Positions 33,427 to 63,217 of a DNA stretch of 64,000 bases are shown in pieces. The notes below the pieces were generated by a model. That model saw only the letters and a list, made by a program, of their open reading frames with translations, was not told where the DNA came from and did no database searches. The first letter of the stretch is position 1. Every line of letters starts with the position of its first letter. The stretch is from Gammaproteobacteria bacterium (lineage in GTDB: Bacteria > Pseudomonadota > Gammaproteobacteria > Nevskiales > Nevskiaceae). Made by a program: the position numbers and the translations under genes. The stretch is from positions 62,001 through 126,000 of the forward strand of contig JAPLSA010000028.1 in the NCBI GenBank assembly GCA_026398815.1, read 5' to 3'.

Positions 33427-34518
33427 ATGCTCAAGACTCTCGTGGCGCTGGCAGTGGTCGGTACCGCCGGTGCAGCGCTGGCCCAGGATGATCAGCCGGT
33501 CACCCGCGATCGCGTCGTCTACAACTCGAACGATTACGTCAGCCTGATCGGCAATCTCGCCATTCCGGACAGCGGTCGGGGCACCGACACCTTCGGCGGC
33601 AACGTCACCTTCATCTTCGGCAACCAGATTCACGAGAACATCTCGATCGAAGGCCGCTTCACCGCAGCCCTGCTGGAAACCGGCCGCGGCAAGGGCACGG
33701 ACTTCTACCAGTACACCGGCGGCCTCGATGTCAGCTTCAGCCCGTACGACCGCCGCGACGAACGCGCGCTGACGCCGTTCGCGCTGATCGGCATCCTGAC
33801 CACCGCTGACGACGTGGCACCGAACAACCGCGACGACAGCTCGATCGGCGGCAACGTCGGCCTCGGCTTCGTCACCAAGCCGCTGTTCCACAACCTGCGG
33901 CTGCGCGCCGAAGGCCGCTACACCTACTCCAGCTTCGAAAGCGGCTACCACGACTACAGCGTCGGCTTCGGTTTCGAGCTGCCGCTCGGCCGCGACCATG
34001 AACAGCTGACGGTCATCCCGGCCAAGATCGAGACCCGGGTGGTCGAGATCGTCAAGTCGGTGCCGCGCCAGATCATCGACACCGACGGCGACACCGTCGA
34101 AGACGCGCAGGACCAGTGCCCGGGTACGCCGAAGGGCGTGCGGGTCGACGCTGCCGGCTGTGTGCTGCCGGGCCAGCTGCTCAGCCTGCGTCCGATCACC
34201 TTCGAAGCCAACGAAGCACGCCTGCGGCCGAACGCCCAGTCGGCGCTCGACGTGATCGCCCGCGGCCTGATCGCCCAGCCGGCGCTGAAGGTCGAGGTCG
34301 GCGGCCATGCATCGCTGACCGGTTCGGCCGAGGAGACGCAGGAACTCTCGCAGCAGCGTGCCGACTCGGTCCGCGCCTACCTGATCGAAAAGGGCGTGTC
34401 GCCGGATCAGCTGATCGCGACCGGCTACGGCAAGAAGCAGCCGAAGGTGCGCCGCGAGCGCAACGACGACGACCGCACGCTGAACCGCCGCGTCGAATTC
34501 CGCGTCATCAGCCGCTGA
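33427..34518 (+). CDS. OmpA-family outer-membrane protein with TSP3 hinge (paralogue 1)
   Basis: The 363-residue protein has a signal peptide to ALA-Q (19/20), a beta-barrel-like N-terminal domain to about residue 190, a thrombospondin-3-type calcium motif (DTDGDTVEDAQDQCPGTP) around 219-236 with two cysteines, and an OmpA C-terminal domain. In that domain the usual GHTD is GHAS at 293-296, so the Asp that contacts diaminopimelate is missing, while the Arg of QQRADSV remains. It is paralogous to the next gene and opens a cluster of surface proteins. Confidence 0.88.
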   Translation: MLKTLVALAVVGTAGAALAQDDQPVTRDRVVYNSNDYVSLIGNLAIPDSGRGTDTFGGNVTFIFGNQIHENISIEGRFTAALLETGRGKGTDFYQYTGGLDVSFSPYDRRDERALTPFALIGILTTADDVAPNNRDDSSIGGNVGLGFVTKPLFHNLRLRAEGRYTYSSFESGYHDYSVGFGFELPLGRDHEQLTVIPAKIETRVVEIVKSVPRQIIDTDGDTVEDAQDQCPGTPKGVRVDAAGCVLPGQLLSLRPITFEANEARLRPNAQSALDVIARGLIAQPALKVEVGGHASLTGSAEETQELSQQRADSVRAYLIEKGVSPDQLIATGYGKKQPKVRRERNDDDRTLNRRVEFRVISR

Positions 34519-34822
34519 TCGCGGACTCCCCTGCCCGGCGACCGGTGATCCGGCAGTCGGGCAGGGGATCAAGAATCAAGGCTGGACGGAGGTTGCGGCA
34601 GGGCGGGGCTTTCTTGCTTTTCCGCCGCTGTCCGATCCCCGGAAGCCTGCAACAACATGCTGATTCAATTGTAGAAATCACACCATCTCATCGACGGCGA
34701 GTTGATTTTTTCGAATTGACTTTGGGGAGGCGGGCCAGCATTCTGCCCGCAAGTTTTGCGCCCGGTCACCCGCGGTGCTCGTTCGTACGGTCGATCCAGT
34801 TCAGGGGCAAGGAAACATACTT
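34519..34822 (+). other. 304-nt intergenic region between the two OmpA-like genes
   Basis: This is the longest gap in the window. It contains an AT-rich island (about 34655-34720), a candidate promoter at 34716-34744 and the ribosome site AAGGA before ATG 34823. A weak inverted repeat of the preceding gene's end (TGCCCGGCGACC, GGGCAGGGG) may end transcription. I see no further gene in it. Confidence 0.6.
34716..34744 (+). promoter_or_regulatory. Candidate promoter of the second OmpA-like gene and lipoprotein genes
   Basis: TTGACT, a 17-nt spacer and CATTCT, about 79 nt before the ATG. The -35 is close to consensus and the -10 weak. Its TTGACTTTGG start resembles the element before paralogue 1. 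Confidence 0.4.
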
Positions 34823-35890
34823 ATGCGCAAGGCTTTGATTGCAGCGGCAGTGCTGTCCAGCGGTGGCGCGCACGCGCATGGCAATAACGATATCGGCCAG
34901 CACGAATACATCAGCATCCTGCCGAGCTACGAATACGACGACAAGGAGCGCACCGGCAAGCGTCGCTTCAGCGGCGGTGCCTCGCTGATCTACGGTCATT
35001 CGTTCGCGAACAATCTCGGGGTCGAGCTGAACGCCAACTTCGGCCTGTTCGAGACCGGCAAGGGCAACGGCACCGATTTCTACCGCTACAGCGGCACCGC
35101 CGATCTGGTTTACACCTTCAACGATCGCAACGGTCCGGCGCTGCTGCATCCGTTCGTGCTGGTCGGTGTCGGCGGCGCCTACAACGACGTAACCCCTGAT
35201 TCCCGCGACGCCGCCAGCCTGCTCTACGGCGGTGGCGCTGGCGTGGTGACCCGCGACCTCTACCACGGCCTGCGCGTCCGCGCGGAAGGCCGCTACGTGC
35301 GCGACGAGTTCGGCCCCGGCTACGGCGATGTCCGCGCCTCGCTCGGCATCGAGATCGCCCTCGGCCGCGCCGTCGCCCGCACCATCGAGGCGCCGGCACC
35401 GCCGCCGCAGATCATCGAAGTGGTCAAGGAAGTCCCGCGTCCGTTCGTCGACACCGACGGCGACACCGTGCCGGATGAACGCGACAAGTGCCCGGATACC
35501 CCGCTGGGCCTGAAGGTCGACTCCGACGGCTGCGTCATCCCTGACCAGGTCATCGAGCTGAAGGGTGTGACCTTCGAGTTCAACAAGACGCGCCTGACGC
35601 CGAACGCGGAAGTCGTGCTCGACACCGTGGTCAAGGCCTTCATCGGCCAGTCGGGCCTGAAGGTCGAGATCGGCGGCCACACCGACTCGCGCGGTTCCGA
35701 CGCCTACAACCAGAAGCTGTCGCAGGGCCGTGCGGATTCCGTCCGCAACTACCTGATCTCGAGGGGCGCACGGCCGGATCAGCTGACTGCGGTCGGCTAC
35801 GGCGAAAGCCAGCTGCTGATCAATCCGGAGACCAACGATGACGACTACGAGCTGAACCGTCGCGTCGAATTCAAGGTCGTCGGCAATTGA
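34823..35890 (+). CDS. OmpA-family outer-membrane protein with TSP3 hinge (paralogue 2)
   Basis: The 355-residue protein has a short signal peptide (to AHA), a barrel-like domain, the calcium motif DTDGDTVPDERDKCPDTP with two cysteines, and a complete OmpA domain (GGHTDSRGSDAYNQKLSQGR) able to bind peptidoglycan. Overall it is laid out like paralogue 1. ATG 34823 is chosen over an in-frame GTG at 34775 because the signal peptide begins there and AAGGA stands nine bases before it. Three lipoprotein genes follow directly, the first beginning 38 nt after this stop. Confidence 0.9.
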   Translation: MRKALIAAAVLSSGGAHAHGNNDIGQHEYISILPSYEYDDKERTGKRRFSGGASLIYGHSFANNLGVELNANFGLFETGKGNGTDFYRYSGTADLVYTFNDRNGPALLHPFVLVGVGGAYNDVTPDSRDAASLLYGGGAGVVTRDLYHGLRVRAEGRYVRDEFGPGYGDVRASLGIEIALGRAVARTIEAPAPPPQIIEVVKEVPRPFVDTDGDTVPDERDKCPDTPLGLKVDSDGCVIPDQVIELKGVTFEFNKTRLTPNAEVVLDTVVKAFIGQSGLKVEIGGHTDSRGSDAYNQKLSQGRADSVRNYLISRGARPDQLTAVGYGESQLLINPETNDDDYELNRRVEFKVVGN

Positions 35891-35928
35891 TCGCCGCCAT
35901 CCGAACGAAGAATGCTATGGAGAACAGA

Positions 35929-36969
35929 GTGAACAAGTCCGCACTGCAGAAACGCCTGATTCCGATGGCGCTGGCGATGATGCTGTCCGGGGGCCTGACC
36001 GGTTGCGCCGATGACGCGAGCAATCTGATCGGCGGCACCACTTCCGGCACGACGGGCGGTTCCACCGGCGGCACGACTTCCGGAACCACGGCCGGTACCA
36101 CTGGCGGCACGACCTCGGGCACCACAGCCGGGACGACGGCCGGCACCACGGGCGGCGCCACCTCGGGGGACACCGGCGGCACGACCTCGGGCACCACGGC
36201 GGGCACCACCGGCGGCACCACCTCGGGCACGACGGCCGGTACCACTGGCGGCACGACCTCGGGTACCACGGCGGGCACCACCGGCGGCACCACCTCGGGT
36301 GACACCGGCGGCACGACGGCCGGCACCACCGGTGGCACGACCTCGGGGACCACGGCTGGCACCACCGGCGGCACCACGTCGGGGACCACGGGTGGCTCGA
36401 CCGGCGGCAGCACCACCGGCGGCGACATCGGCGGCATCGTCTGCAACCCGACGTCGGACACCTTCCGGCCGATCCGGCTGCCGAACGCTGCGGCCACGGG
36501 CCAGGTCAACGGCATCTGCCTGGGCTGCTCGGTTGCCAATCCGGAAAACACGATCGACGAAGATTTCACGACGATCTCCATGCTGATCACGCCGGTCGGT
36601 CTTCTGGCCGGCTCGCCGCAGCTGAACGTCATCGACACGGCGACCACCTACCCGGCAGGCCGTCGCGCCGGTTTCGTGATCTTCGATCCGGCCGGCGCGC
36701 TGCTGACCTTGGACCTGCTGCAGTCGGTGACCATCGTGGCCGCCAACAATGGCGATCCGGTCGATTCCGCCACCGTGCCGACCGGCATCTCGCTGGATCT
36801 GCTGGGCACGCCGATCCTCGGCACCGATGGCGCGCGCTTTGTCAGCTTCGTACCGGCCGCGAACTTCAACGAACTGCGCCTCACCTACCGCGGCGCGCTG
36901 GCCACCGCCCTGCAGCAGATTGCCGTCGTCCAGGCCTGCGTGTCGGTCAACCCGGCCGTGCTGCCGTGA
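35929..36969 (+). CDS. Lipoprotein with Thr/Gly repeat stalk and four-Cys domain (paralogue A)
   Basis: A lipoprotein signal with C26 (SGGLTGC) is followed by CADDASNLI, a 131-residue stalk of GTTS/GTTA/GTTG quartets, and a C-terminal domain of about 180 residues. The domain holds an initial Cys (IVCNPTSD), GICLGCSV, NPENTIDEDFTT and a last Cys in QACVSV. Ala after the Cys favours outer-membrane sorting. I chose GTG 35929 because GGAG lies six bases upstream and the signal peptide then has normal length; an upstream ATG at 35917 and a TTG at 35887 are in frame. I do not recognise the domain as a named family. Confidence 0.8.
   Translation: MNKSALQKRLIPMALAMMLSGGLTGCADDASNLIGGTTSGTTGGSTGGTTSGTTAGTTGGTTSGTTAGTTAGTTGGATSGDTGGTTSGTTAGTTGGTTSGTTAGTTGGTTSGTTAGTTGGTTSGDTGGTTAGTTGGTTSGTTAGTTGGTTSGTTGGSTGGSTTGGDIGGIVCNPTSDTFRPIRLPNAAATGQVNGICLGCSVANPENTIDEDFTTISMLITPVGLLAGSPQLNVIDTATTYPAGRRAGFVIFDPAGALLTLDLLQSVTIVAANNGDPVDSATVPTGISLDLLGTPILGTDGARFVSFVPAANFNELRLTYRGALATALQQIAVVQACVSVNPAVLP
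36031..36423 (+). repeat. In-frame tandem repeat encoding the Thr/Gly stalk of paralogue A
   Basis: About eleven copies of a degenerate 36-bp unit (twelve residues, three GTTx quartets with x = S, A, G). Individual quartets vary (GDTG, GSTG, GATSG). Copy number could change without shifting the frame. Confidence 0.85.
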
Positions 36970-36989
36970 TTGCTCCAAGGAATTCTCAG

Positions 36990-37820
36990 ATGAAGCGACT
37001 GATCGGCATCACCATGGCGCTCACGTTGGCCGGCGGCCTCGCCGGCTGTGCCGACGACGCCAGCAACCTGATTGGCGGGACCACGTCCGGCACGACCGGC
37101 GGTACCACCGGCGGCACGACCTCGGGAACCACCGCCGGCACCACGGGTGGCACCACTTCCGGAACCACGGCGGGTACCACGGGCGGCACCACGTCGGGAA
37201 CGACGGCGGGCACCACCGGCGGCACCACCTCGGGTGTCACAGGCGGCACGACCGGCGGCACGACCACCGGTGGCGACATCGGCGGCATCGTCTGCAACCC
37301 GACGTCCGACACCTTCCGCCCGATCCGTCAGCCGAACGCGGCGGCCACCGGCCAGACCAACGGCATCTGCATCGGCTGCTCGGTCGGCAATCCGGAAAAC
37401 GCCATTGACGACGACTTCACGACCGTTGCGGCGCTGAACACGCCGGTCGGCCTGCTGAGTGGTTCGTCGCAGCTGAACGTCATCGACACCGCCCAGACCT
37501 ACCCGGCAGGCCGCCGTGCCGGCTTCGTGGTGTTCGATCCGGCCGGCGCGCTGCTGACGCTGAACCTGCTGCAGTCGGTGTCGATCGTCGCCGCCAACAA
37601 CGGCATGCCGGTCGACATGGCCACGGTGCCGCCGCGTCTTGCGCTGGATCTGCTCGGCACCCGCATCATCGGCAACGAAGACGCGCAGTTCCTGAGCTTC
37701 GTGCCGACCGCCGAATTCAACGAACTGCGGCTGTCGTTCGGTGGCCTGCTTGGCAATGTGCTCGCCCAGCTCGGCGTCGTCCACGCCTGCGTTTCCGTGA
37801 ATCCTGCCGTACTGCCATGA
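36990..37820 (+). CDS. Lipoprotein with Thr/Gly repeat stalk and four-Cys domain (paralogue B)
   Basis: The layout is that of paralogue A, with lipobox Cys C20 (LAGGLAGC), CADDASNLI, a shorter 67-residue stalk, and a C-terminal domain close in sequence to A throughout (IVCNPTSDTFRPIR, GICIGCSVGNPENAIDDDF, HACVSVNPAVLP at the end). The ribosome site AAGGA precedes ATG 36990. It starts 20 nt after paralogue A and overlaps paralogue C by 4 nt, so the three are probably co-transcribed. Confidence 0.85.
   Translation: MKRLIGITMALTLAGGLAGCADDASNLIGGTTSGTTGGTTGGTTSGTTAGTTGGTTSGTTAGTTGGTTSGTTAGTTGGTTSGVTGGTTGGTTTGGDIGGIVCNPTSDTFRPIRQPNAAATGQTNGICIGCSVGNPENAIDDDFTTVAALNTPVGLLSGSSQLNVIDTAQTYPAGRRAGFVVFDPAGALLTLNLLQSVSIVAANNGMPVDMATVPPRLALDLLGTRIIGNEDAQFLSFVPTAEFNELRLSFGGLLGNVLAQLGVVHACVSVNPAVLP
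37074..37274 (+). repeat. In-frame tandem repeat encoding the Thr/Gly stalk of paralogue B
   Basis: The same 36-bp-unit repeat as in paralogue A with fewer copies (67 codons against 131). The different lengths in two close paralogues imply expansion or contraction since duplication. Confidence 0.85.
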
Positions 37821-38557
37821 CTGTAATGAAGCGAAATTCAATGAAGTCCTGGATGGCAGTTGCAGCGGCGCTGACCCTAGCCGGCGGCTTGGCAGGCTGC
37901 GCCGATGATTCGAGCAATCTCGTTGATCCGGTCGACCCTGTTGATCCGGTCGATCCGGTGGACCCGGTGCCCTGCGTGATCAGCTGCACGCCGACCCCGC
38001 CGCCGCCGCCGACCTCGCTGGAGGATTGCAACCCGAACAATCCGAACGCGACCTACGCGCCGATCAACAGCAACGTGTCGTCGGTCGACGTCAACACCGA
38101 AGGCCTGTGCATCAACTGCCGCGTGGCCTCGTCGGCCTCGGCATTCGACGGCAACCTCAGCACGTTCTCGGTCGAGACGGCCGGCGTTGGCGTGCTCGGC
38201 ACGATCGGCCTGGCCGGTTACGGCCCGCGCAGCTATCAGACGTCGCCGACGGTGCAGCGTCGCATCGGCTTCTTCGTGGCCTATCCGGCCGATTCGGTGG
38301 CGGACGTGGCGCTGCTGACCAAGGTCAGCGCCTCGACGGTCGACATCAACGGCGCCGTGGTGCAGGGGCCGGGCGACCAGACGCTCGACACCGTGCTGAG
38401 CCTGCAGCTGCTGGGCCTGCCGCTGCTGGAGGGCCAGTCGCTGGCCTTCGTCAGCGTGCCGACCTCGCAGCCGTTCAATGGCGCCCGTCTCGACTTCACG
38501 CCGACCATCGGCGTGCTGGCCGGCCTCAACGTCATCGAGGCCTGTATCTCGCGCTGA
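37817..38557 (+). CDS. Lipoprotein with (VDP)5 stalk and four-Cys domain (paralogue C)
   Basis: The 246-residue frame starts at ATG 37817 (ATGA overlap) or at in-frame Mets 37826 or 37841. Lipobox LAGGLAGC and CADDSSNL match A and B, but the stalk is five VDP triplets and a Pro-rich part. The C-terminal domain is divergent yet keeps DCNPNNP, GLCINCRV, AFDGNLSTFSV and a final EACISR. It is the last gene of the cluster and is followed by a terminator 28 nt downstream. Confidence 0.8.
   Translation: MTVMKRNSMKSWMAVAAALTLAGGLAGCADDSSNLVDPVDPVDPVDPVDPVPCVISCTPTPPPPPTSLEDCNPNNPNATYAPINSNVSSVDVNTEGLCINCRVASSASAFDGNLSTFSVETAGVGVLGTIGLAGYGPRSYQTSPTVQRRIGFFVAYPADSVADVALLTKVSASTVDINGAVVQGPGDQTLDTVLSLQLLGLPLLEGQSLAFVSVPTSQPFNGARLDFTPTIGVLAGLNVIEACISR
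37922..37966 (+). repeat. (VDP)5 coding repeat
   Basis: Five 9-bp units (variants of GTTGATCCG/GTCGACCCT) encode the stalk that replaces the Thr/Gly stalk of the two paralogues. Confidence 0.8.
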
Positions 38558-38584
38558 AGTCCGGCAGACGAGTAGCGACACCGG

Positions 38585-38612
38585 AAGGCCCGCAGCGATG
38601 CGGGCCTTTTTC
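38585..38612 (+). terminator. Rho-independent terminator
   Basis: AAGGCCCGCA-GCGA-TGCGGGCCTTTTT lies 28 nt after the third lipoprotein gene and probably ends the surface-protein operon. Confidence 0.9.
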
Positions 38613-59836: not shown

Positions 59837-62800
59837 ATGAGAACGCATGGGGCGCGGATCATCCGCACCGGCATTGCCAGCCTGGTCACGGCGCTCGCTG
59901 CGCTGACCACATCCGGGCCGGCGAAGGCCTATCACTTCTTCGAGGCCGACGTCGGCGGCGGCTGCCGCTGGGCGGCGATCGGACCGGGTAACGTCGACTA
60001 TCGCGTCGATGGCTCGTCAACGCCGGACATCGCCGCCACCGTGCTGGCCGAAGCCGTCGCGGCGAAAAGCCAGTGGAACGACGTGGCATCCGCCGAAGAC
60101 GTGTTCGGCAACTTCACCACTGTCGCGATCGACTACACCGGCGACAACTTCGGCACCGCCTGGGGCATCGGCACCTTGAGCGGCGCCAGCGACGGCCAGA
60201 ACGAAGTGGTGTTCGACGAGGACGGCAGCGCGATGGCGGTCATCGGCCTCGATCCGTCCGACGTCAACGGCTTCGGCCCGTCGCGCGAAGTGGTCAGCGG
60301 CGGCAGCTGCACGATCACCGACGCCTTCCTGCTGCTCAACGGCACGCGCACCAACTACCACCGGCCGTCCACCGCCGTGCACGAGCTGGGCCACACGATC
60401 GGCTTCGCGCACTCCTCGGTCGGCCAGTTCAACAGCCTGAACTCCACCGCCTTCAACGGCGGCTTCGGCAGCCCGAGCGATGCGCTGACGCCGATCAACA
60501 TCAACAACGTGCCGACCATGCATCCGTTCAGCATCACCGGCACGGCCCGAGCGACGATCGAGGACGACGATCGCGCCGCGATCTCGCGCCGCTATCCGAA
60601 CGCCGCCTTCTCGACCACGCTCGGCACCATCGTCGGCAATGTCCGCCGCTGTTCCAACGATGCCCCGGTCGCCGGCGTCAACGTGCGCGCCATCAACACC
60701 GCCACCGGCGCCCAGGTCAGCCGCTACACCGCCTTCGATTCCAACACCACCGGCCGCTTCGAAATCAGTGTGCCGCCGGGCAGCTATCACGTGGTGGTCG
60801 AGGAAATGGGCCACAACGGCTTCGAAGCCGACCGCATGGCGATCAAGACCGCCACCGACCAGGGCTTCCCGTTCGAGTACTACGGCCCGACCGCCGAAGC
60901 CGAGCTGGCCTGCTCGGAAGATGACAGCGAAGCGCCGCTGGCCGTGCCGGTCAGCGCCGGCAGCACCGCCGACGTGCAGATCCGCCTCAACGACGGCGTC
61001 CGCCTGGCGTTCGTCGTCGACGACACCGGCAGCATGTCGAACGAGATCAGCGCCGTGCGGCAGATCCTGACCAACATCATCGACAACCGCATCGCCGCCG
61101 GCGGGCCGTTCCCGCGCACCGCCGTCGTCACCTTCAAGGACAACGTCACCCGCCGCGTGGTCAGCGACGTGCCATCGAAGATCCAGGCCGTGGTCAACAC
61201 GCTGTTCGCCAGTGGCGGCAGCGATTGCCCGGAATCGTCGAACGCCGCGCTGATGACCGCCGGCCGCATCCTCGCCAACGGCGGCCGCGCAATCCTGTTC
61301 ACCGATGCCGACTCCCGCCCCGACGGCCCGAGCCGCGGCAGCGTGGTCAGCTACTACCGCAGCCGCAGCCTGACCATGTCGACCCTGCTGTCGGCGACCT
61401 GCAGCGAGGAATTCCCGTCGGCCCGCGCCGCCGTGACCAGCGGCACCGGCACGCGCAAGGCCGAACGCGCCGGCCAGCATGAAGGCTCGGTGAGCCTCCG
61501 GCCGTGGGCGCCGGAGACCATCGTGGCCCGCGCACTGACGCCGCGTCGCCCGGCCGGCGTCCACTTCGCCGAGGAGTACCCGGAACCGGAAATGCTGGGC
61601 CGTGAGAGCGCGTTCACCACCAACTCGGGCATCTCGCAGTTCACCGGCGGCGTGTTTGTCGCCACGCCGCGCCCGATCTCCGCCGATGACCGCACCCGCT
61701 ACATCAACGCCGGCACCAGCATCGGCCTCGGCAGTGTCACCTCGACGGTGGCCACGCTGGCGCCGTCGGCCGTGCCGGCCGGCGCGACGGCGGTGCTCGA
61801 CGTGCTCGGCGCATCGACCAACTTCACCTCGTCGTCGACGGTGAGCTTCGCCAATCCGTCGCTCACCGTGGTGTCGCGTGAAGTGCTGTCGCCGCGTCTG
61901 ATCCGCACCCGGATCGCCGTGGCGGCCGACACCGTGCCGGGCTTCTTCGACGTCAGCGTCGCCACCCCGCTCGGCACCGCCACCGAAGTCGCCAACGGCG
62001 TCGGCGCACTGCAGGTGACCACGCCGGTGAGCGGCGGTGAAATCGCCACGCTGTCGCCGTCCTCGGCCGCACGCGGCAGCAGCCGCGACGTGACGATCTT
62101 CGGCGCCGGCACCGCGTTCACTGCCGATTCGGTCGTGCAGTTCCTCCGCAGCGGCTCGGTGACGCCGAACATCACGGTGAATTCCCGCACGCTGGTCTCG
62201 CCGACCGAACTGCGCGTCAACGTCACCATCGCCGACGCGGCCGTGACCTCGTTCTACGACGTTGCCGTCGACAGCATCACCGAGGCGCGCGGCTTCACGG
62301 TGACCGAAGTGGCGCCGGTGGTGCCGACCATCGTGTCGCTGACGCCCAGCGCCAGCGCCCGGGGCGTGACCGGCCTGCCGGTGACCCTGGTCGGCCAGAA
62401 CGTCAGCTTCACCGATGCCAGCGTGGTCAGCTTCGGCGACGGCATCACCGTCACCGGCACCACCCTGGTCGACGCCACCACGCTGACCGCGACGATCTCG
62501 GTCGCCGCCGATGCCGCACCGGGCTTCCGCGATGTCACGGTCAACACCGCTGGCGTCACCGCAGCGATCCTGGCCGGCTTCCAGGTCACCGTGCCGCCGG
62601 CCGACATCGTGTCGGTGACGCCGGGCAGCGGCAGCCGCGGCGCCAGCGGCCTGGCGGTCACCATCGTCGGAGAGAACGTCGCCTTCAGCGCCGACAGCGT
62701 CGTCAGCTTCGGCGATGGCATCACCGTCACCGGCACCTCGCGGCTCAACCCGACGACGCTGGTCGCCACGCTCAGCATCGCTGCCGATGCGGCGGTCGGC

Positions 62801-63217
62801 CCCCGCAATGTCTCGGTGACCACCGATGGCCTGACGCTGGTGGAGAGCAACGGCTTCACGGTCAGCAATGCCGTCATTACCGGCCTTGCACCGGACAGCG
62901 CGCAGGCCGGCAGCCGCAGCGTGACGCTGACCATCTCCGGCAGCGGCTTCGGCAGCCCGGCGGCGGTGGCGTTCTCCGGCACCGGCATCACCGTGCGCAG
63001 CGTGACCGTCGATAGCGCCACCCGCATCACCGCCGTGATCGACCTCGATCGCAATGCGGCGGTCGGCCTGCGCGATGTCACGGTGACCGTCAGCGGCGTC
63101 TCCGCCCAGTTCGGCTTCCGGGTGCTGCAGCGGCGCAGCGGCGGCGCGGCTGGCCTGGCGCTGGTGCTTGGCCTTGGCGCGATGGCTGGCCTGCGGCGCC
63201 GGTCCCGGCGCCGCTGA
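59837..63217 (+). CDS. Surface matrixin-like metalloprotease with VWA, TIG repeats and GlyGly-CTERM-like tail
   Basis: The 1126-residue protein has a signal peptide; a metzincin-type protease domain with HELGHTIGFAHS (near 182) as zinc site; a carboxypeptidase regulatory-like domain (about 270-330); a VWA domain from about 388 with the metal-site motif DDTGSMSNE; and five IPT/TIG-like repeats (about 640-1095; VVSFGDGITVTGT occurs in two). The end, RRSGGAAGLALVLGLGAMAG then RRRSRRR, fits a GlyGly-CTERM sorting signal cut by rhombosortase. I infer a secreted or surface adhesin-protease. Confidence 0.83.
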   Translation: MRTHGARIIRTGIASLVTALAALTTSGPAKAYHFFEADVGGGCRWAAIGPGNVDYRVDGSSTPDIAATVLAEAVAAKSQWNDVASAEDVFGNFTTVAIDYTGDNFGTAWGIGTLSGASDGQNEVVFDEDGSAMAVIGLDPSDVNGFGPSREVVSGGSCTITDAFLLLNGTRTNYHRPSTAVHELGHTIGFAHSSVGQFNSLNSTAFNGGFGSPSDALTPININNVPTMHPFSITGTARATIEDDDRAAISRRYPNAAFSTTLGTIVGNVRRCSNDAPVAGVNVRAINTATGAQVSRYTAFDSNTTGRFEISVPPGSYHVVVEEMGHNGFEADRMAIKTATDQGFPFEYYGPTAEAELACSEDDSEAPLAVPVSAGSTADVQIRLNDGVRLAFVVDDTGSMSNEISAVRQILTNIIDNRIAAGGPFPRTAVVTFKDNVTRRVVSDVPSKIQAVVNTLFASGGSDCPESSNAALMTAGRILANGGRAILFTDADSRPDGPSRGSVVSYYRSRSLTMSTLLSATCSEEFPSARAAVTSGTGTRKAERAGQHEGSVSLRPWAPETIVARALTPRRPAGVHFAEEYPEPEMLGRESAFTTNSGISQFTGGVFVATPRPISADDRTRYINAGTSIGLGSVTSTVATLAPSAVPAGATAVLDVLGASTNFTSSSTVSFANPSLTVVSREVLSPRLIRTRIAVAADTVPGFFDVSVATPLGTATEVANGVGALQVTTPVSGGEIATLSPSSAARGSSRDVTIFGAGTAFTADSVVQFLRSGSVTPNITVNSRTLVSPTELRVNVTIADAAVTSFYDVAVDSITEARGFTVTEVAPVVPTIVSLTPSASARGVTGLPVTLVGQNVSFTDASVVSFGDGITVTGTTLVDATTLTATISVAADAAPGFRDVTVNTAGVTAAILAGFQVTVPPADIVSVTPGSGSRGASGLAVTIVGENVAFSADSVVSFGDGITVTGTSRLNPTTLVATLSIAADAAVGPRNVSVTTDGLTLVESNGFTVSNAVITGLAPDSAQAGSRSVTLTISGSGFGSPAAVAFSGTGITVRSVTVDSATRITAVIDLDRNAAVGLRDVTVTVSGVSAQFGFRVLQRRSGGAAGLALVLGLGAMAGLRRRSRRR

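What the first reader, a model, noticed from the sequence alone, without database searches (positions are those of the whole stretch)
33427..38557. Candidate undescribed surface system: two OmpA/TSP3 paralogues with three repeat-stalk lipoproteins
Five consecutive plus-strand genes encode two paralogous OmpA-type proteins and three paralogous lipoproteins that share the lipobox, the CADD[AS]SNL start and a C-terminal domain, differing mainly in stalk (131-residue Thr/Gly, 67-residue Thr/Gly, (VDP)5). Close spacing (38, 20 and -4 nt) for the last four genes and a terminator at the end suggest one operon. Taken together this suggests a peptidoglycan-anchored outer-membrane complex holding lipid-anchored stalks of different length. 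The genes and paralogy are seen; the complex is inferred.
Basis: partly seen in the sequence, partly recalled or inferred. Interest (0 to 1): 0.72.

Follow-up and report, generated by a model that had tools for sequence, protein, structure and literature searches.

The report
OmpA anchors paired with stalked lipoproteins
In Nevskia and related bacteria, genes for OmpA-type outer-membrane anchors often sit beside genes for lipid-anchored proteins that carry an unclassified, sugar-binding-like head on a stalk of variable length, which looks like a two-part cell-surface display system.

Summary
The five genes are real and as described. Each lipoprotein is a stalk plus a ~170-residue C-terminal head that matches no Pfam, NCBIfam or PDB sequence family. 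The predicted head fold is a galactose-binding-like beta-sandwich. The head occurs in 67 of 85 genomes of the order and rarely in class and phylum samples. The genetic link to OmpA is strong but not universal: 69 of 136 head ORFs, in 62 of 114 loci, have an OmpA gene within 1 kb. Conversely, of 34 close relatives of OmpA-2 in 17 Nevskia-type genomes, 30 lie beside a head gene, 1 does not, 3 are cut by contig ends (counted by hand). Within-genome partner swaps show that anchors and heads are inherited as matched pairs (79% versus 50%, 0 of 1000 shuffles). Stalks change freely. The nearest architecture known is myxobacterial TraA/TraB, whose family tests fail here. Surface exposure and a physical complex are inferred. 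OmpA-1 has lost the presumed peptidoglycan-site Asp, so 'two peptidoglycan anchors' is doubtful. Verdict: real module, unclassified head family, new variant of a known kind.

The parts
33427..34518 (+). OmpA-1: signal peptide, N-terminal region homologous to that of OmpA-2, one TSP3-like motif, OmpA C-terminal domain with the usual Asp replaced (GGHASLTG where OmpA-2 has GGHTDSRG)
   Evidence: it groups with the upstream OmpA of L051, L052, L054-L057 and L075
34823..35890 (+). OmpA-2: signal peptide, eight predicted beta strands, one TSP3-like motif, OmpA C-terminal domain with GGHTD
   Evidence: 30 of 34 close relatives lie beside a head gene (one search read)
35684..35686 (+). codon of the Asp in GGHTD of OmpA-2 (residue 288), presumed peptidoglycan-binding Asp (role recalled from OmpA-like domains)
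35917..36969 (+). lipoprotein 1: lipobox, 131-residue Thr/Gly run, head
36030..36409 (+). 36-bp tandem repeats coding the Thr/Gly stalk of lipoprotein 1
36442..36966 (+). head domain 1
36990..37820 (+). lipoprotein 2: lipobox, 67-residue Thr/Gly run, head
37074..37261 (+). 36-bp tandem repeats coding the Thr/Gly stalk of lipoprotein 2
37293..37817 (+). head domain 2, predicted galactose-binding-like beta-sandwich
37817..38557 (+). lipoprotein 3: lipobox, (VDP)5 and proline-rich stalk, divergent head; start overlaps the end of lipoprotein 2 by 4 nt
37922..37968 (+). repeats coding (VDP)5
38027..38554 (+). head domain 3
38583..38610 (+). intrinsic terminator at the end of the cluster

Best explanation
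This is a two-part outer-membrane display module. Part one is an OmpA-type protein (OmpA-2): an eight-stranded barrel in the outer membrane, a short TSP3-like linker and a C-terminal domain that grips peptidoglycan. Part two is one or more lipoproteins, held in the outer membrane by an N-terminal lipid, that present a C-terminal galactose-binding-like head on a stalk of variable length. Most likely the heads face outward and bind a glycan (the cells' own matrix, a neighbouring cell or a surface), and the OmpA partner ties the site to the cell wall so that pulling does not strip the lipid-anchored stalks from the membrane. Stalks of 146, 82 and 43 residues in this window would place heads at different heights. 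Shown: the genes, lipoboxes, the head family, the genetic pairing and co-inheritance, stalk swapping. Predicted: the folds. Inferred: surface exposure, ligand, physical contact, load-bearing role.
For: Head family: 67 of 85 genomes in the order. Pairing: 69 of 136 head ORFs have an OmpA-domain ORF within 1 kb, 60 within 300 bp, 48 on the same strand; with 1-25 OmpA-domain genes per genome my rough arithmetic gives about 1.5% by chance. Converse: of 34 hits of OmpA-2 at E<=1e-60 in 17 of 18 genomes of the genus, 30 have a head within 2 kb, 1 has none (L198), 3 are cut by contig ends; counted as loci 22, 1 and 2 of 25 (by hand; the window is included). 7 other OmpA-domain neighbourhoods of the own genome have no head (the genome has 12 PF00691 matches in all). 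Co-absence: G016 has neither though it has 9 OmpA-domain genes. Partner-swap test in 17 genomes with two pairs, OmpA compared on the C-terminal domain: 106 concordant, 28 discordant, 2 skipped; shuffles 50% +-4%, 0 of 1000 as high. Distance correlation over 69 pairs r = 0.60, 0 of 2000 permutations (species not controlled). Lipobox by pattern in 59 of 69 paired and 50 of 67 unpaired ORFs. Stalk from lipid Cys to head: 27 to 581 residues in paired ORFs, about 20 to 850 in all where a lipobox was found; such free length fits exposure outside better than a fixed periplasmic gap. Stalk type: Thr/Gly, VDP, Ig-like Big_2 (2 stretches in paired L085, 8 in unpaired L063), TSP3 (11 in paired L061, 13 in unpaired L078). 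Fold: pLDDT 80.9, pTM 0.80; best solved matches CBM29, lectinolysin lectin domain and CBM32, E 2e-4 to 8e-4, TM 0.39-0.57. OmpA-2 model: eight strands plus OmpA domain; barrels NspA and Ail match at TM 0.69 and 0.65 by target length.
Against: 67 of 136 head ORFs, and 52 of 114 loci, have no OmpA gene within 1 kb; closeness to the end of the stretch can explain at most 17 of those loci. The two-head proteins of about 1000 residues are mostly unpaired, and so are 7 of 7 loci of genus g21 (Salinisphaera). The same genome has a secreted head protein without lipobox (L008) and a lipoprotein head (L191) with no OmpA gene in the fetched stretch. OmpA-1 lacks the site Asp in this window and three relatives. 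Co-inheritance can follow from linkage alone and does not show contact; the 134 comparisons are not independent. Fold matches are at fold level only (10-17% identity), so sugar binding is a guess. No route for export to the outer face was identified. The OmpA-2 model is modest (pLDDT 68, pTM 0.44; whole-chain TM to E. coli OmpA only 0.33-0.34).
Confidence: 0.5

Rival explanations
1. Cell-contact recognition, working like TraA/TraB of myxobacteria: heads on one cell bind heads or sugars on a neighbour and the wall-anchored OmpA barrel holds the junction.
For: Published TraB has a barrel, TSP3 repeats and an OmpA domain; TraA has a recognition head on a stalk with a likely lipidated anchor; the genes overlap in an operon (passages of PMC12045341 and PMC6372800). 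The window has the same set of parts. Both OmpA proteins match the TSP3-OmpA part of the TraB model (69 and 89 bits).
Against: No hit in this genome reaches the TraB cut-off of 700 bits, the best partial hit is another OmpA (G000:C30, 169 bits), and four of the 14 control genomes give weak hits too, so the partial match is unspecific. The lipid is at the N-terminus here and the proteins end with the head. Heads 1 and 2 are 90-91% identical to those of the nearest relative, as is OmpA-2 (91%): no excess divergence of the heads. Homotypic binding is not testable here.
Confidence: 0.15
2. Periplasmic module: the lipoproteins face inward and their heads bind cell-wall glycan or another periplasmic sugar, with OmpA as a second wall tether.
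For: Default sorting of outer-membrane lipoproteins is to the inner leaflet (established knowledge). OmpA of E. coli binds the lipoprotein RcsF through its periplasmic domain, not the barrel (abstract of PMC7553776). Head cysteines (CxxC and a late Cys) could form disulfides in the periplasm.
Against: Stalks of 27 to 581 residues in paired proteins and stalks that differ between orthologues do not fit a fixed gap.
Confidence: 0.22
3. No physical partnership: the genes are only co-regulated neighbours, for example envelope proteins induced together.
For: Half of the head ORFs have no OmpA neighbour. Divergent arrangement in 21 of 69 paired ORFs.
Against: Pairing recurs in both orientations and several architectures across families of the order and in two genomes outside it; matched co-inheritance; specificity for an OmpA subset.
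Confidence: 0.13

Closest known systems
TraA/TraB outer membrane exchange receptor pair (Myxococcales)
   Same: Operon pair of a barrel-TSP3-OmpA protein and a stalk with a recognition head and a likely lipid anchor (passages of PMC12045341 and PMC6372800).
   Different: Lipid anchor at the N-terminus here; no PA14-type match in the lipoproteins; TraB model cut-off missed by far; several lipoproteins per locus; no evidence of membrane exchange.
AtaA/TpgA (Acinetobacter)
   Same: A surface fibre with a peptidoglycan-binding partner that reinforces its anchoring (passages of PMC13082670).
   Different: AtaA is a trimeric autotransporter; the window proteins are lipoproteins and their OmpA partner has its own predicted barrel. 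The TpgA model is only partly matched by OmpA-2 (33.6 bits, cut-off 350).
RcsF with OmpA (E. coli)
   Same: Outer-membrane lipoprotein with an OmpA partner (abstract of PMC7553776).
   Different: RcsF is a stress sensor; no sequence relation was sought here.
F5/8 type C, CBM32 and CBM29 carbohydrate-binding domains
   Same: Predicted fold; an NxxD....T-like motif in the head resembles the one recalled for F5/8 type C domains.
   Different: No Pfam match to such a family even at E 10; TM 0.39-0.57; CxxC and a late Cys conserved here.
OmpA/OprF family
   Same: PF00691 domain and predicted barrel.
   Different: A subset found almost always beside head genes in the genus; OmpA-1 with the site Asp replaced.

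Membership tests
OmpA family | C-terminal OmpA domain PF00691 | tested here: met
   79.1 and 77.9 bits, cut-off 27.2
OmpA family | eight-stranded N-terminal barrel | tested here: met
   OmpA-2 only, by prediction: eight strands; solved eight-stranded barrels NspA and Ail match at TM 0.69 and 0.65 by target length; OmpA-1 not modelled
OmpA family | Asp of the peptidoglycan site | tested here: inconclusive
   present in OmpA-2, replaced in OmpA-1; among partner OmpA ORFs 51 have it, 2 do not, 10 did not fit the pattern; the role of the residue is recalled
TSP3-OmpA proteins | TSP3 repeat PF02412 | tested here: inconclusive
   one motif each, 17.7 and 14.8 bits, below the cut-off of 25; many divergent partners in other genera have five or six by motif count
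Bacterial lipoproteins | signal peptide with lipobox Cys | tested here: met
   LTGC, LAGC, LAGC in the window; pattern in 59 of 69 paired and 50 of 67 unpaired head ORFs; lipidation itself not testable
TraA/TraB | full-length TraB model NF033763 | tested here: not met
   69.3 and 88.7 bits, cut-off 700, only the TSP3-OmpA part matched; no hit over cut-off in the genome
TraA/TraB | TraA with PA14-like head and MYXO-CTERM tail | tested here: not met
   no Pfam family in the lipoproteins at E<=1 except a weak P68HR hit (E 0.87); the proteins end with the head; no MYXO-CTERM model was run
F5/8 type C / CBM32 | sequence match to a Pfam carbohydrate-binding family | tested here: not met
   30 heads at E<=10: six unrelated families, best E 0.029
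F5/8 type C / CBM32 | galactose-binding-like beta-sandwich fold | tested here: met
   predicted model and Foldseek, fold level only
F5/8 type C / CBM32 | glycan binding | not testable with these tools
   needs purified protein

The most novel reading that the evidence does not exclude
A gammaproteobacterial counterpart of TraAB that arose independently: a cell-contact recognition or adhesion apparatus in which matched OmpA-head pairs form parallel sets within one cell, with head height tuned by repeat-number changes in the stalk.
Probability: 0.17. Interest if true: 0.85.

Novelty: new variant of a known kind. Interest (0 to 1): 0.6.

Why it matters
It defines an unclassified head-domain family, concentrated in one order of bacteria and tied by gene order and inheritance to a specific subset of OmpA proteins. 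OmpA-like proteins are usually discussed as general envelope anchors; here a subset appears dedicated to particular lipoproteins. Natural stalk swaps, stalk-length differences between orthologues and two matched pairs in some genomes give a ready comparative set for asking how lipid-anchored surface proteins are held to the cell wall.

Tried and rejected
Rejected: that the head is a known Pfam or NCBIfam domain (one search gave only scattered hits of one or two of 30 heads, best E 0.008) or has a PDB sequence relative (none at E<=1). Rejected: that all OmpA genes go with heads; 7 other OmpA-domain neighbourhoods of this genome and three next-best hits in relatives (L209-L211) have none. Considered and dropped: that OmpA linker length follows stalk length; L080 (five TSP3 motifs, short stalk) and L061, L068 and L087 (at most one motif, long stalks) speak against it. 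Led nowhere: plasmid collection (no match), viral fold library (weak matches, many to phage tail proteins), Rfam (none), sigma-70 scan (none found). Paper searches, seen as listings only: Nevskia with OmpA, 0 papers; Nevskia with rosette, stalk, surface film, genome, nothing on this in the 15 listed of 823; thrombospondin type 3 with OmpA and peptidoglycan, 1 paper, on TraAB; family names with adhesin, lipoprotein and OmpA, none of the 12 listed of 714 holds the family names; first search, 20 listed of 2,016.

Limits: the place lists were cut by the tool. The 136 ORFs in 114 loci are those listed and fetched, plus seven loci (L191-L197, three of them outside the order), not every head. Later loci are not in those counts: L199, L201, L202, L207 and L208 are paired, L204, L205 and L206 are not (L204 has only a MotB-like OmpA domain some 4 kb away), and L198, L200, L203 and L209-L211 have an OmpA but no head, L219 and L220 are paired, L217 and L218 not. 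The class and phylum searches scored at most 9 and 8 candidates per genome, so they may miss some heads. ORFs are stop-to-stop, so gaps are approximate. TSP3 counts come from a simple pattern; another pattern printed zeros and was not used. Trees are of the quick kind.
Full report
Observation. The five genes, the lipoboxes, the shared CADD[AS]SNL start, the 131- and 67-residue Thr/Gly runs, the (VDP)5 run, the spacings and the terminator were checked and found. The stalks of lipoproteins 1 and 2 are coded by tandem repeats with a 36-bp unit, 12 residues. The two OmpA proteins are 44% identical. I call this genus Nevskia on that basis.

What the proteins are. The OmpA proteins match PF00691 clearly and TSP_3 weakly. 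The OmpA-2 model has eight strands followed by the OmpA domain, with modest confidence (pLDDT 68, pTM 0.44). Its top hit by E-value is an E. coli OmpA model (whole-chain TM only 0.33-0.34); the solved barrels NspA and Ail match at TM 0.69 and 0.65 by target length. The lipoprotein heads match no Pfam, NCBIfam or PDB sequence family. Across 30 diverse heads CxxC is invariant, and an Asp, a late Cys and several other positions are nearly so. The predicted head is a beta-sandwich (pLDDT 80.9, pTM 0.80). Its best solved matches are CBM29, the lectinolysin lectin domain and CBM32 (E 2e-4 to 8e-4, TM 0.39-0.57). That is fold-level similarity only.

Distribution. The head profile hits 67 of 85 genomes of the order (65 of 85 with the first, narrower alignment). 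In a class sample it hits 6 of 369 genomes, three of them inside the order; in a phylum sample 5 of 398, one of them the window's own. Those two searches scored fewer candidates per genome. No plasmid match was found.

Pairing with OmpA. I fetched the neighbourhoods of all heads listed and of seven further loci. Of 136 head ORFs, 69 have an OmpA-domain ORF within 1 kb, 60 within 300 bp, 48 on the same strand. By locus it is 62 of 114; of the 52 others, 17 have a head ORF within 1.5 kb of the end of the stretch. With 1 to 25 OmpA-domain genes per genome about 1.5% would be expected by chance (my arithmetic). In eight Nevskia loci (window, L051, L052, L054-L057, L075) two OmpA genes are followed by one to three head genes. 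In other genera an OmpA with several TSP3 motifs often lies divergently beside a ~500-residue head protein, or an OmpA with one motif precedes a ~280-residue one. Outside the order, two of seven loci have an OmpA gene directly beside the head gene (L219, L220); L217, L218 and L195 do not, and L196 and L197 are short contigs.

Converse and co-inheritance. Searching 18 genomes of the genus with OmpA-2 gave 34 hits at E<=1e-60 in 17 genomes. Checked by hand against head positions, 30 have a head within 2 kb, one (L198) is followed instead by a frame with a lipobox and no head match, and three run into contig ends. Counted as loci this is 22, 1 and 2 of 25. G016 has neither gene type. In the OmpA tree the window's OmpA-2 sits in a starred set of 25 rows that are all nearest partners or the upstream OmpA of the same cassettes, while the 7 other OmpA rows of the own genome fall outside it (the rows came from head neighbourhoods apart from those 7). 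In 17 genomes with two independent pairs, head similarity and OmpA C-terminal-domain similarity agree in 106 of 134 comparisons (2 more were skipped); shuffling partners within genomes gives 50% +-4%, and 0 of 1000 shuffles reach 79%. This controls for species relatedness, but tight linkage alone could produce it.

Stalks. Most head proteins are lipoproteins by pattern (59 of 69 paired, 50 of 67 unpaired; several more show a lipobox by eye). The stalk between lipid Cys and head is 27 to 581 residues in paired ORFs and about 20 to 850 in all where a lipobox was found. Orthologues of lipoprotein 1 have stalks of about 153 (window), 152 (L051) and 93 (L052) residues (counted slightly into the head), and relatives of lipoprotein 3 have a Thr/Gly stalk in L054, L055 and L074 where the window has VDP. 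In L054, L055 and L074 two heads are fused in one protein with a Thr/Gly linker between them. Elsewhere the stalk holds Ig-like Big_2 or TSP3 stretches. In the head tree lipoproteins 1 and 2 each group with their counterparts in L051 and L052 (support 97* and 89), so they split before these species did; head 3 is in a separate, long-branched group of five (100*).

Results against the reading. Half of the head ORFs are unpaired. Unpaired types include most two-head proteins of about 1000 residues, 7 of 7 loci of genus g21 (Salinisphaera), and in this genome L008 (secreted, no lipobox) and L191. OmpA-1 of the window, L051, L052 and L056 has lost the Asp of the GHTD motif, while OmpA-1 of L093, L096 and L098 keeps it. 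Thus only OmpA-2 is a clear candidate peptidoglycan anchor in this window.

Mechanism. The simplest reading that fits is a display module: OmpA-2 in the outer membrane gripping the wall, and lipid-anchored stalks carrying sugar-binding-like heads. Free stalk length argues for heads outside. TraA/TraB is the best architectural parallel: TraB has a barrel, TSP3 repeats and an OmpA domain, TraA a recognition head on a stalk with a likely lipidated anchor, and the genes overlap in an operon (passages of PMC12045341 and PMC6372800). The first of these, a preprint, proposes that TraB anchors the junction to peptidoglycan. AtaA/TpgA is a second parallel for reinforced surface proteins (passages of PMC13082670). 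A caution is E. coli RcsF, which binds the periplasmic part of OmpA and, its authors conclude, does not reach the surface by way of it (abstract of PMC7553776). Family membership in TraAB fails by model score, and the anchor is at the other end.

Verdict. A real, recurrent gene module with an unclassified head family; a new variant of the known kind 'wall-anchored barrel plus lipid-anchored receptor'. Confidence in the genetic module is high; confidence in the full mechanism is about one half.

Noticed in passing
L008:5454-6122 (G000:C26:75456-75956): A further head in the same genome: secreted, no lipobox, no stalk, no OmpA-domain ORF in the fetched 12 kb; close relatives in L071, L072, L073, L076 and L077.
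   Followed up: partly
L191:8428-9381 (G000:C1) and L204:8164-9087: Lipoproteins with a divergent head lacking CxxC and with Asp right after the lipid Cys; no OmpA partner within 1 kb, although similar proteins in L199 and L201 are paired.
   Followed up: partly
33427-34518; also L051, L052, L056: Upstream OmpA with the Asp of the GHTD motif replaced in four related genomes, kept in L093, L096 and L098.
   Followed up: partly
L068:244-6355: Two OmpA-head pairs lie back to back in divergent orientation in one Nevskia-type genome.
   Followed up: no
L198:7993-10752: The one close OmpA-2 relative without a head is followed by a 510-codon frame with a lipobox by eye and no head match: perhaps a different passenger.
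   Followed up: partly
L167:6736-10164 (G000:C17): A large lipoprotein that looks like a penicillin-acylase-type enzyme (recalled, not tested) with the same kind of Thr/Gly stretch after its lipid Cys, so such linkers are not confined to this module.
   Followed up: no
59837-63217: 1126-residue protein with a 276-bp repeat (62323-62832) and a hydrophobic, Arg-rich C-terminal tail like a surface-sorting signal (recalled, not tested).
   Followed up: no
L195:5403-9755: Outside the order, two heads sit near the N-terminus of a 1451-residue frame with cadherin-type repeats.
   Followed up: partly
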